From Candidatus Parcubacteria bacterium (lineage in GTDB: Bacteria; Patescibacteriota; Minisyncoccia; Phycocordibacterales; Zambryskibacteraceae), in assembly GCA_019661895.1 (NCBI GenBank), contig JAIFWO010000006.1, positions 1-32,597 on the forward strand: a stretch of 32,597 nucleotides of DNA. Direction: 5' to 3'. Positions 1,973 to 23,273 of this stretch are shown here, piece after piece. The notes beneath the pieces are model-generated. The model saw nothing but the letters and a program-made list of their open reading frames with translations, searched no databases and had not been told where the DNA came from. Position numbers and translations under genes: made by a program. Position 1 is the first letter of the stretch; every line of letters starts with the position of its first letter.

Positions 1973-2608
1973 ATGCACGGCATGCTCGGCAAATTGCTCG
2001 AACTCATCCTGACCGTGGCGGAGGAGAAACTCCCCACGCTCGTGGATTTGTTCGAAAGACTCACAAGCAAGGATGCAAATCACTGGTGGATCGCTCTCCG
2101 GAAGTTCCTCCGCAAGGAGAACCCATGGGCACCACCCACGTCCTTCTTGGTGACCTCGAACGGTCTTACCGGCGAACAGTGGATTGCTCGGCTCGAAGCC
2201 GCGAAGTACAACGTCGGCGACTACGCCAAGCAGATGTATCGCTCGCACAAGTTCGTGGCGACCAATGGCGTGACGTACAAGCTCGGCGTCATCATGGGTC
2301 ACGAGTTCGAGGACAACGACCGCACTAACCAGAACATCTGGGCGGAAGGCGAGCGTCGTGGGTGGCTGAAGCCCTCCATGGAACACTCCGGACTTCTGCG
2401 CGAACTGGTCTCCGACGAGGAAATCGAGCGCATGGGACTCTGGGCGCTCATCCTCATGCACGAGCCTGTTTCCGGCTCGTACGGCAATCCGAGCATTCTC
2501 GGCGTCTATCGCAACGACAGGGGTCGGTGGGTGGACGCCTCCTACGGCCGTCCCGGCGGCAGGTGGGATCGTGAGCGCGGCTTCGTGTTTCTCGTTCCGC
2601 AAGAGTAA
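1973..2608 (+). CDS. DGR target (variable) protein, C-terminal VR with CLec-like pattern
   Basis: 211-aa ORF with consensus promoter and RBS; C-terminus GVYRNDRGRWVDASYGRPGGRWDRERGFVFLVPQE matches the TR translation except at TR-adenine codons. Confidence 0.9.
   Translation: MHGMLGKLLELILTVAEEKLPTLVDLFERLTSKDANHWWIALRKFLRKENPWAPPTSFLVTSNGLTGEQWIARLEAAKYNVGDYAKQMYRSHKFVATNGVTYKLGVIMGHEFEDNDRTNQNIWAEGERRGWLKPSMEHSGLLRELVSDEEIERMGLWALILMHEPVSGSYGNPSILGVYRNDRGRWVDASYGRPGGRWDRERGFVFLVPQE
2468..2602 (+). repeat. DGR variable repeat (VR)
   Basis: 135 bp aligned to TR 2963-3097 at a constant offset of 495 without gaps; 19 differences, all at TR adenines. Confidence 0.95.
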
Positions 2609-2620
2609 TACTCTGGACTT

Positions 2621-2651
2621 GGTCTCTCTGACCTCTTCGGTCACTTAGACC
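2621..2651. promoter_or_regulatory. Hairpin/cruciform-forming inverted repeat just downstream of VR
   Basis: GGTCT-ctc-TGACC-TCTTC-GGTCA-ctt-AGACC, beginning 19 nt after the VR end. Confidence 0.65.
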
Positions 2652-2661
2652 TTTGTCCTCG

Positions 2662-2694
2662 GGCCCCGCAAAGTATCGCGGGGCCTTTTGTTTT
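2662..2694 (+). terminator. Rho-independent terminator after the DGR target gene
   Basis: GGCCCCGC-aaagtatc-GCGGGGCC-TTTTGTTTT. Confidence 0.9.
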
Positions 2695-2962
2695 CATATA
2701 AAATAAACAATGGTAGTAGGCGAATCATGCTCTTGATCAAGGTTGGGAGCGGCCGAATCCAGTATCCATAAGTTGAGAGCGTCCTCGATCAAGGTTTCGG
2801 ACGGAGGACTTATGCAGACACTTCAAAAAATGAAGATACTTGGTGTAGGGCACTATCGCATTATCCCAGTAGGTCATACTACTGAATGAGATGCGGAATA
2901 CGATACAACTCCAAGATCGGCATGGGCCTTCAAGGGGTGGTGGTACGGAAGGTGCTCTATAC

Positions 2963-3097
2963 ATAACCGACTCGAACGGCAATCCGAACATTCTCGGCGT
3001 CAATCGCAACGACAAGGGTCGGTGGGTGAACGCCTACAACGGCAATCCCGACAACAGGTGGAATCGTGAGAACGGCTTCGTGTTTCTCGTTCCGCAA
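2963..3097 (+). repeat. DGR template repeat (TR)
   Basis: Non-mutated partner of the VR; rich in AAC/AAT codons (SNGNPNILGVNRNDKGRWVNAYNGNPDNRWNRENGFVFLVPQ). Confidence 0.95.
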
Positions 3098-3144: not shown

Positions 3145-3501
3145 CTACGAAGCCTTGGCGGAGTAGGCTTTAACCACTTGACCATTCCAGCCGCCGAGCA
3201 TTTTGCCAATCTCATCAAGCGGTAGAGAAATAGCAATATATCTTTTATTATCCAAGGATTTTATTTCCCAAAGTACTAGAAGTAAGATCTTAATCGTGTC
3301 TAATTTGCGAATGGAGATCTCTAAGTACGGCAACTTTCTCTCTTTCGATTGGAACGATGCTGTTGAAACTGCTTCAATTAGCTCTATAAACAATTTATCG
3401 ATTCTATTACCTAAAGAATAGCGATGAGTCTTTGGTAAGATAGTGTGATAACCATGCCAAAGGATATATACACTCTTGATCTTTTCGAGAACCGGCAACA
3501 T
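3145..3501 (-). CDS. avd: Avd-like DGR accessory variability determinant (four-helix bundle family)
   Basis: LPVLEKIKSVYILWHGYHTILPKTHRYSLGNRIDKLFIELIEA...RYIAISLPLDEIGKMLGGW fits the Avd/S23-like pattern (PK..RY.LG, GRMLGGW-like); internal ATG at 3501 gives 118 aa. Confidence 0.85.
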   Translation of the reverse strand: MLPVLEKIKSVYILWHGYHTILPKTHRYSLGNRIDKLFIELIEAVSTASFQSKERKLPYLEISIRKLDTIKILLLVLWEIKSLDNKRYIAISLPLDEIGKMLGGWNGQVVKAYSAKAS

Positions 3502-4495
3502 CCGAGCGGGGGGGGGTCGTAAAAGGCTGCATGATGTATTCCATAGTATCATCTCGCTCGAAAATCTCCTTGCGGCATATGAGGAATTCGTGAGGGGCAA
3601 ACGAAATCGGGCCGACGTCCAATTATTTGGCCTGCATTTGATGGATAACATTCTTGCTCTCCACCAAGAATTAAAAAATAAGACATACACCCACTCTACC
3701 TACGAAGCCTTCCACATCAGTGACCCCAAACCCCGCTCTATCCACAAAGCTTCTGTCCGAGACAGACTCTTGCATCACGCGATTTACCGTATTCTGTATC
3801 CCTATTTTGACACCAAATTCATCCATGACTCATACTCTTGTCGCTTGAACAAAGGTACGCATAGGGCTATGAACAGATTCAAAGCTTTTACCCGAAAAGT
3901 CTCGAAGAATACTACCAAGACTTGCTGGGTTTTGAAATGTGATATTCGGAAGTTCTTTGCTTCTATCGACCAGGAGATTCTGCTTAAGATTCTAAAGAAA
4001 CATATTCAGGATGAAGACACGGGCTGGCTCTTAGAGAGAATCGTCCAAAGCTTCCACTCGGGAGTAGAGGGGAAAGGTTTACCCCTCGGCAATCTCACCT
4101 CTCAACTCTTGGTAAATATCTATATGAATGAATTCGATCAATTTATAAAACACAAACTTAAAATCAAATACTATATCCGCTACGCCGATGACTTCGTTGT
4201 TACTTCGATATATCGTAGTGACATGGAGGAGCTTGTTTCGAAAATTGAGAGCTTTCTGAAAGAAGAATTAAAGTTAGAACTCCATCCTGATAAGCTATTT
4301 ATTAAAACACTGGCTTCGGGTGTAGATTTCTTGGGCTGGGTACATTTTCCGGACCATCGAGTGCTCCGGACAGTGACGAAGAGAAAGATGCTTAAAAAGT
4401 TTTCTTGCGACGTGTCGAAGGAGTCGGTGGCTTCGTGTAGAGGATTACTCGGTCATGGGAATAGCTATAAATTGCGAAAGAGGATAATGCTATAA
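3476..4495 (+). CDS. DGR-type reverse transcriptase
   Basis: SRLNKGTHRAMNRF-type region, LPLGNLTSQLLVNIYMNEFDQFIKHKLKIKYYIRYADDFVV (SQ and YADD motifs), C-terminal GLLGHGNSYKL; start codon uncertain (TTG at 3476). Confidence 0.92.
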   Translation: MIFSRTGNIRAGGGRKRLHDVFHSIISLENLLAAYEEFVRGKRNRADVQLFGLHLMDNILALHQELKNKTYTHSTYEAFHISDPKPRSIHKASVRDRLLHHAIYRILYPYFDTKFIHDSYSCRLNKGTHRAMNRFKAFTRKVSKNTTKTCWVLKCDIRKFFASIDQEILLKILKKHIQDEDTGWLLERIVQSFHSGVEGKGLPLGNLTSQLLVNIYMNEFDQFIKHKLKIKYYIRYADDFVVTSIYRSDMEELVSKIESFLKEELKLELHPDKLFIKTLASGVDFLGWVHFPDHRVLRTVTKRKMLKKFSCDVSKESVASCRGLLGHGNSYKLRKRIML

Positions 4496-22610: not shown

Positions 22611-23273
22611 ATGGCTGTTCGTAACCTAAGCTTTTCTTTAAATGAGTTTTACCATGTATATAGCAGAGGTGTGGATAAACGCGAAATTTTCTTAGACGAT
22701 CATGATAAAAAGAGGTTCGTCCGCCTACTTTATTTATGCAACGGGTCTAAATCTGTCGAGTACAGAATCTTGAAGGATAAACCGCTCTCTGACATTGATA
22801 TGGGAGAAAAGCTTGTCGCCATAGGGGCTTACTGCCTAATGTCCAACCATTTCCACTTATTGATAAGGGAGACGGTGGAAGGAGGTATTGTGAAGTTCAT
22901 GAGCAAGCTTTTAACAGCGCATTCTTCATATTTTAACAAGAAATATGGCCGTACCGGGGCTTTGTTTGGCAGTGAATTCAAGTCATCACACTTAAATAGT
23001 GATGAATATTTAAAGTACATGTTTGCTTATATACACTTAAACCCCTTGAAGATTCTTGATAGTAATTGGAAAAGTAAGGCAATAAATCCAGTGATTGCCA
23101 GCCAGTTTCTGGATAGGTATAACTTTTCTAGCCAGGCCGATTATAAGGAAAAGTGGAGAGAAGAGATGCTCATATTGAACCGAGCCGCTTTCCCAGAATA
23201 CTTTGCAAATAAAGGGGATTTTGAAGCTTTTCTATATGACTGGCTCGACTACGGAGGGGAGGCCTTGGTATAA
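22611..23273 (+). mobile_element. REP-associated tyrosine (Y1/HUH) transposase, RAYT family
   Basis: FYHVYSRGVDKREIFLDD, YCLMSNHFHLLI (HUH), LLTAHSSYFNKKYGRTGALFGSEFKS, YIHLNPLK. Confidence 0.92.

What the first reader, a model, noticed from the sequence alone, without database searches (positions are those of the whole stretch)
2468..3097. Diversity-generating retroelement: TR/VR pair with every difference at a template adenine
TR 2963-3097 and VR 2468-2602 align without gaps at a constant offset of 495. I count 19 differences in 135 positions, all at TR adenines (about 36 adenines in the TR), and every one changes an amino acid or is part of a codon change (N to Y, S, D, R or G; K to R; D to G; Y to S). 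The last ~24 nt of the repeat before the final AA contain no A and are identical, as expected for an IMH-like region. This is the hallmark of A-directed mutagenic retrohoming. DGRs are known to be common in CPR genomes; this locus and its target may be uncharacterised.
Basis: partly seen in the sequence, partly recalled or inferred. Interest (0 to 1): 0.95.

Follow-up and report, generated by a model that had tools for sequence, protein, structure and literature searches.

The report
Diversity-generating retroelement with slippage-prone switch
This is a real gene-diversifying element from ultra-small (Patescibacteria/CPR) bacteria, and the start of its essential helper gene, in this and most related genomes, contains a run of repeated DNA letters that easily gains or loses units, so the mutation machine itself probably flips randomly on and off, which I did not find described before.

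Summary
TR 2963-3097 and VR 2468-2602 align without gaps, and all 19 differences (16 in the conservative core) fall at template adenines (P about 1e-11 to 1e-13). The cassette is complete: a 211-aa target (VP), TR, an RT with LGNLTSQ and YADD, and an accessory avd (Pfam bAvd) on the opposite strand between TR and RT. The DGR is a member of a known, Patescibacteria-rich kind.

The unexpected part lies outside the given coordinates. At 3508-3516, between the avd body and the RT core, sits a G9 tract. In 153 of 193 usable related loci, a simple-sequence repeat lies at this place: G7-13, (GA)n, (CT)n, (GT)n, four-base or five-base units, never three or six. None of 69 non-Patescibacteria DGRs has one. 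The avd start codon lies on the far side of the tract, inside the RT N-terminus. There the RT His codon is CAT 91 : CAC 1, against 59% CAT elsewhere in the RT.

As assembled, that ATG is in frame with avd in 37/152 tract loci, but in 34/35 tract-free loci that have such an ATG. Best reading: a phase-variable (contingency-locus) DGR. Length polymorphism within a population and expression switching are not shown.

The parts
1973..2608 (+). VP: diversified target protein, 211 aa, VR at its C-terminus
   Evidence: ORF; no Pfam/NCBIfam match; relatives 33-53% identical in related genomes, several with their own TR/VR
2468..2602 (+). VR (conservative core 2472-2602)
2615..2658 (+). Stem-loop about 12 nt after the VR; candidate equivalent of the DGR target-site stem-loop
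   Evidence: fold of 2606-2700, z = -6.2, shared with the hairpin at 2661-2686
2661..2686 (+). GC-rich hairpin followed by TTTTGTTTT: probable intrinsic terminator of VP
   Evidence: and sequence
2963..3097 (+). TR (conservative core 2967-3097)
3145..3532 (-). avd, accessory variability determinant, antisense to RT. Body 3148-3501; proposed start ATG 3532-3530 on the far side of the G tract. At G9 this ATG is out of frame; at G8 or G11 it gives a 128/129-aa protein
   Evidence: Pfam bAvd PF22296 E = 1.9e-10, above cut-off; relatives; frames
3543..3551 (-). Candidate extended -10 of avd (TGATACTAT on the avd strand) inside the RT N-terminal codons
   Evidence: window sequence; family motif TGnTANNNT with 7-nt spacing to the ATG; in the window the spacing is 10 nt
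3508..3516 (.). G9 tract: simple-sequence repeat within the proposed avd 5' coding end and ahead of the RT core
   Evidence: only G9 tract in the 621-kb assembly
3454..4495 (+). RT. Core from 3554; LGNLTSQ 4085-4105, YADD 4181-4192. As assembled the first in-frame start is TTG 3476; the upstream ATG 3454 is in frame only at G8 or G11
   Evidence: Pfam RVT_1 E = 7e-26, PHROG 1423 E = 2e-108, frames

Best explanation
The locus is a bona fide DGR: the RT, with Avd, copies the TR RNA with errors at adenines and the cDNA replaces the VR at the 3' end of VP. In this Patescibacteria lineage avd is inverted, and its start codon lies inside the N-terminal coding sequence of the RT. Between that start codon and the Avd body lies a short tandem repeat (G9 here). 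Replication slippage in the tract shifts the avd reading frame and so switches Avd, and with it mutagenic retrohoming, on and off at random and reversibly. In a minority of relatives, including this window, the RT may also start beyond the tract, so that one slippage event co-switches both genes (G8 or G11 = both open; G9 = both closed from the conserved ATGs). Shown here: the DGR anatomy, the conserved tract, the nucleotide-level conservation of the avd ATG, and scrambled frames among species. Inferred: slippage within populations, the effect on expression, and the effect on retrohoming.
For: DGR. avd is antisense in 197 of 200 related loci and sense in 69/69 non-Patescibacteria DGRs. A tract lies in the 120 nt before the RT core in 100/116 loci against 0.2 expected from flanking DNA and 0/69 controls; with a further sample, 153 of 193 usable loci, unit sizes 1:119, 2:27, 4:5, 5:2, 3 or 6: none. 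Unit types replace each other at one site between close relatives: TTGG x10, ATTG x7, TTCG x9, CTGA x8 and G9 in flanks 77-93% identical; at least 31 changes of tract type on the RT tree. avd start codon: RT codon -7 is CAT 91: CAC 1, against 823:575 in the RT core (P about 1e-19), and other conserved RT His columns are 41-81% CAT. An open ATG within 60 nt was found in 96/96 loci against at most 80 in 300 synonymous randomisations. That ATG is preceded by TANNNT at 7 nt in 54/67 loci against 2.6 expected, as in leaderless genes. It is in frame in 37/152 tract loci but in 34/40 tract-free loci, i.e. 34/35 of those with an ATG there (Fisher 2e-12). Avd is required for DGR activity in the BPP-1 system (PMC12875486). 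Stretches of N fall at the tract in 3/116 loci against 0.3 expected.
Against: No reads, so no tract-length polymorphism within a population was seen, and MAG consensus tract lengths may be wrong by a base. In the window itself an ATG lies just after the tract on the avd strand (3501-3499, as in 5/96 loci) and a TTG for the RT at 3476, so both proteins might be made at G9 from other starts. The RT start across the tract is weakly supported (no clear promoter; His codons CAT 28:1 against 43:23 elsewhere in the same avd genes). The in-frame share among tract loci (16/91 for the -21 ATG) is below one third (P = 0.001), which simple neutral slippage does not predict. Loci are related, so P values are optimistic.
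Confidence: 0.8

Rival explanations
1. The tract controls transcription, not frame: it is the spacer between -35 and -10 of the RT (and/or avd) promoter, so its length tunes RT transcription, as in meningococcal porA.
For: In 62/100 tract loci the RT has an ATG after the tract; TANNNT follows the tract directly in 22/98 loci (4.6 expected) and TANNNT-N7-ATG occurs in 17/62.
Against: Most loci lack that -10; it does not explain why an avd ATG on the far side is conserved at nucleotide level or why avd is in frame in tract-free loci. May act in addition.
Confidence: 0.25
2. Transcriptional slippage or ribosomal frameshifting on the tract yields a fixed low fraction of full-length Avd; the DNA tract itself is stable.
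For: Homopolymers of 9 or more can cause RNA polymerase slippage (general knowledge); most assembled loci are out of frame.
Against: Two-, four- and five-base repeats (34 of 153 tracts) at the same site do not suit this; tract type and length change rapidly between close relatives.
Confidence: 0.1
3. An ordinary DGR in which the tract has no regulatory role (neutral repeat, or RNA-structural spacer) and avd starts at TTG/GTG/ATG after the tract.
For: 66/96 avd have some TTG/GTG within the first 15 codons after the tract.
Against: Tract enrichment about 500-fold over flanks; 25/96 avd have no start codon after it; ATG conservation across the tract.
Confidence: 0.05

Closest known systems
Patescibacteria (CPR) diversity-generating retroelements (RT clade 2 of Roux et al. 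2021, PMC8144416)
   Same: RT, TR/VR, target without recognisable domains, host lineage
   Different: Roux et al. does not mention avd, homopolymers or phase variation in the text searched; antisense avd and repeat tract are described here. The RT was not placed on their tree.
Bordetella phage BPP-1 DGR
   Same: A-directed retrohoming anatomy, bAvd-family accessory, stem-loop after the VR, VR at the target 3' end
   Different: In BPP-1 avd is on the same strand, upstream of TR (PMC12875486); here avd is antisense between TR and RT, with a repeat tract in its start region.
Simple-sequence contingency loci (Haemophilus tetranucleotide genes; Neisseria and Campylobacter poly-G genes)
   Same: Short tandem repeat between start codon and gene body, units not multiples of three, relatives in all three frames
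   Different: Known examples mostly switch surface structures or methyltransferases; here the switched gene would be part of a targeted mutagenesis machine. Polymorphism within a population not tested.
hifA/hifB divergent promoters with TA repeats (Haemophilus; from memory)
   Same: One repeat between two divergent genes that could control both
   Different: There transcriptional spacing; here the repeat lies within the coding end of avd.

Membership tests
Diversity-generating retroelement | TR/VR pair differing only at TR adenines | tested here: met
   19/19 (16/16 core) mismatches at A
Diversity-generating retroelement | DGR-type RT: [ILV]GxxxSQ in place of QGxxxSP, with YxDD | tested here: met
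   LGNLTSQ 4085-4105, YADD 4181-4192; PHROG 1423 RT E = 2e-108; the motif rule itself is from memory
Diversity-generating retroelement | Accessory protein Avd | tested here: met
   PF22296 bAvd E = 1.9e-10
Diversity-generating retroelement | VR at 3' end of a target ORF; non-synonymous changes, mostly at AAY codons | tested here: met
   15 codons changed, all non-synonymous
Diversity-generating retroelement | Target C-terminal C-type-lectin-like fold | tested here: inconclusive
   AF2 model mean pLDDT 82; no significant PDB or viral match, only weak lectin hits
Diversity-generating retroelement | A-free identical 3' end (IMH-like) and stem-loop after VR | tested here: met
   23 A-free identical nt; stem-loop 2615-2658
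Diversity-generating retroelement | Demonstrated retrohoming activity | not testable with these tools
   needs reads or experiment
Repeat-mediated phase-variable (contingency) locus | Repeat tract of hypermutable length, far above background, at a fixed place | tested here: met
   100/116 loci vs 0.2 expected; 0/69 controls
Repeat-mediated phase-variable (contingency) locus | Start codon and gene body on opposite sides of the tract | tested here: met
   avd, family level; in the window an ATG after the tract leaves some doubt
Repeat-mediated phase-variable (contingency) locus | Repeat unit not a multiple of three; ON and OFF frames both seen among relatives | tested here: met
   units 1, 2, 4, 5; frames ON 37 of 152
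Repeat-mediated phase-variable (contingency) locus | Length polymorphism within one population and switching of expression | not testable with these tools
   no reads, one genome per species

The most novel reading that the evidence does not exclude
A two-tier mutability device widespread in Patescibacteria: a slippage-prone repeat in overlapping antisense start regions co-switches avd and RT, so that a targeted hypermutation machine is itself under stochastic, reversible, mostly-OFF genetic control.
Probability: 0.4. Interest if true: 0.92.

Novelty: new variant of a known kind. Interest (0 to 1): 0.82.

Why it matters
How cells restrain DGRs between bouts of diversification is open. A repeat in the start of the essential cofactor gives a simple answer for the lineage in which DGRs are especially common: cells are mostly OFF with rare ON variants. 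It makes testable predictions from existing metagenomic reads. It also shows a nested arrangement in which a start codon and promoter of one gene are embedded in the N-terminal codons of the other.

Tried and rejected
Scan of GTDB genomes and IMG/VR with the single VP sequence: no relative; whole-genome search worked instead. The minus-strand 181-aa ORF first looked like antisense noise but proved to be avd. First HMM-based placing of the avd start failed because the model included the tract; redone by frame. Promoter search for an RT start across the tract was weak, so co-switching of RT is kept as a possibility only. VP fold search gave nothing significant. The C/G-template control is contaminated by the DGR pairs themselves and was not used. 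Near-identical locus pairs with different tract lengths were sought and not found; 100%-identical pairs are most likely the same genome held twice. Paul et al. 2017 and Wu et al. 2018 are not in the library, so prior notice of the antisense avd or tract there cannot be excluded; literature searches found no link of DGRs to phase variation.

Full report
1. Observation. The TR/VR pair is real. At a constant offset of 495, 135 columns align without gaps, and all 19 mismatches are at TR adenines (36 of 135); the secure core (2472-2602 / 2967-3097) has 16 of 16. Every changed codon is non-synonymous. The assembly (621 kb, 33 contigs) has no other copy.

2. Anatomy. VP (1973-2608) has no known domain. 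Its relatives in related genomes are 33-53% identical over the aligned part, and several carry their own TR/VR. A stem-loop follows the VR by about 12 nt, then a terminator-like hairpin. The RT (core 3554-4495) has RVT_1, LGNLTSQ and YADD. Between TR and RT, on the minus strand, lies a bAvd-family gene (PF22296, E = 1.9e-10). avd is antisense in 197 of 200 related loci and sense in all 69 non-Patescibacteria DGRs used as controls. The related named genomes are nearly all Patescibacteria; 139 of 384 sampled genomes of the phylum have an RT of this kind.

3. The tract. At 3508-3516 lies G9, the only G9 tract in the assembly. In its family, none of the 14 genomes without the RT has any G9 tract. 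A repeat lies in the 120 nt before the RT core in 100 of 116 loci, against 0.2 expected from 813 kb of flanking DNA, and in 0 of 69 controls. In the combined set of 193 loci, 153 have a tract: G7-13 in 119, dinucleotides (GA, CT, GT) in 27, four-base units in 5, five-base units in 2, and no unit of three or six. Close relatives carry different units at the same site: TTGG x10 and ATTG x7 with 93% identical flanks, and TTCG x9, CTGA x8 and G9 in further relatives. On the RT tree the tract type changed at least 31 times. One genome (G286) has four copies with (GA)9, (GT)12, (GT)10 and (TG)9. This points to selection for a length-unstable tract, not for a given sequence.

4. Where avd starts. Only 5 of 96 avd genes have an ATG soon after the tract, and 25 have no start codon there at all. 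On the other side, the RT N-terminus has a His at -7 from the core that control RTs lack. Its codon is CAT 91: CAC 1, whereas other conserved RT His columns are 41-81% CAT. CAT on the RT strand is ATG on the avd strand. Synonymous randomisation of RT codons leaves an open ATG in at most 80 of 96 loci; 96 are observed. Upstream of that ATG, 54 of 67 loci have TANNNT at exactly 7 nt, usually with a TG in front, against 2.6 expected: a leaderless-type promoter written into the RT codons. In loci without a tract this ATG region is in frame with avd in 34 of 40 (34 of the 35 that have an ATG there); in tract loci, 37 of 152 (Fisher 2e-12). The tract-free loci thus act as a natural control for the start assignment.

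5. Mechanism. The most likely working is translational phase variation of avd by slippage in the tract. Since Avd is needed for retrohoming in the reconstituted BPP-1 system (PMC12875486), an out-of-frame tract would switch the DGR off. Fewer loci are in frame than the one third expected (16 of 91 for the -21 ATG, P = 0.001), perhaps because OFF is favoured. In 38 of 100 tract loci, the window among them, the RT has no ATG after the tract; candidate ATGs lie mostly 53-67 nt before it, inside avd. In the window, G8 or G11 opens both avd (128/129 aa) and RT (346/347 aa) from these ATGs, while G9 closes both. Because each ATG is the complement of an in-frame codon of the other gene, co-phasing follows automatically and is not independent evidence. 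Evidence for an RT start there is weak.

6. Limits. No reads, no expression data, one genome per species. Tract lengths in MAGs may be off by one. In the window, alternative starts (ATG 3501-3499 for avd, TTG 3476 for RT) could allow expression at G9. Related loci are not independent. Two key papers on CPR DGRs were not in the library.

7. Novelty. The DGR is a known kind. The antisense avd with a conserved, type-switching repeat between start codon and gene body is, as far as the searches show, a new variant: a contingency-locus switch on a targeted mutagenesis system.

Noticed in passing
G000 contig C6:41749-41756 (L076): The only other G8 tract of the genome lies in an ORF that looks like a secreted protein on the minus strand; could be another phase-variable gene.
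   Followed up: partly
genomes G040, G041, G046, G050: Several relatives of the same order carry many G9+ tracts elsewhere in the genome, so repeat-mediated phase variation may be common in some Patescibacteria.
   Followed up: no
genome G286 (L276, L291, L299, L301): One genome with several DGR RT copies, each with its own repeat tract ((GA)9, (GT)12, (GT)10, (TG)9).
   Followed up: partly
L025, L029, L032, L037, L041, L113: A small inverted repeat (e.g. AAAAGCACC-GAC-GGTGCTTTT) directly beside the G tract in a subset of loci, overlapping the avd N-terminal codons; role unknown.
   Followed up: no
window 22611-23273: ORF resembling a REP-associated (RayT/Y1) transposase by eye; not tested.
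   Followed up: no
L061, L111, L128: Assemblies have N or N-runs exactly at or next to the tract, as if reads disagreed there.
   Followed up: partly
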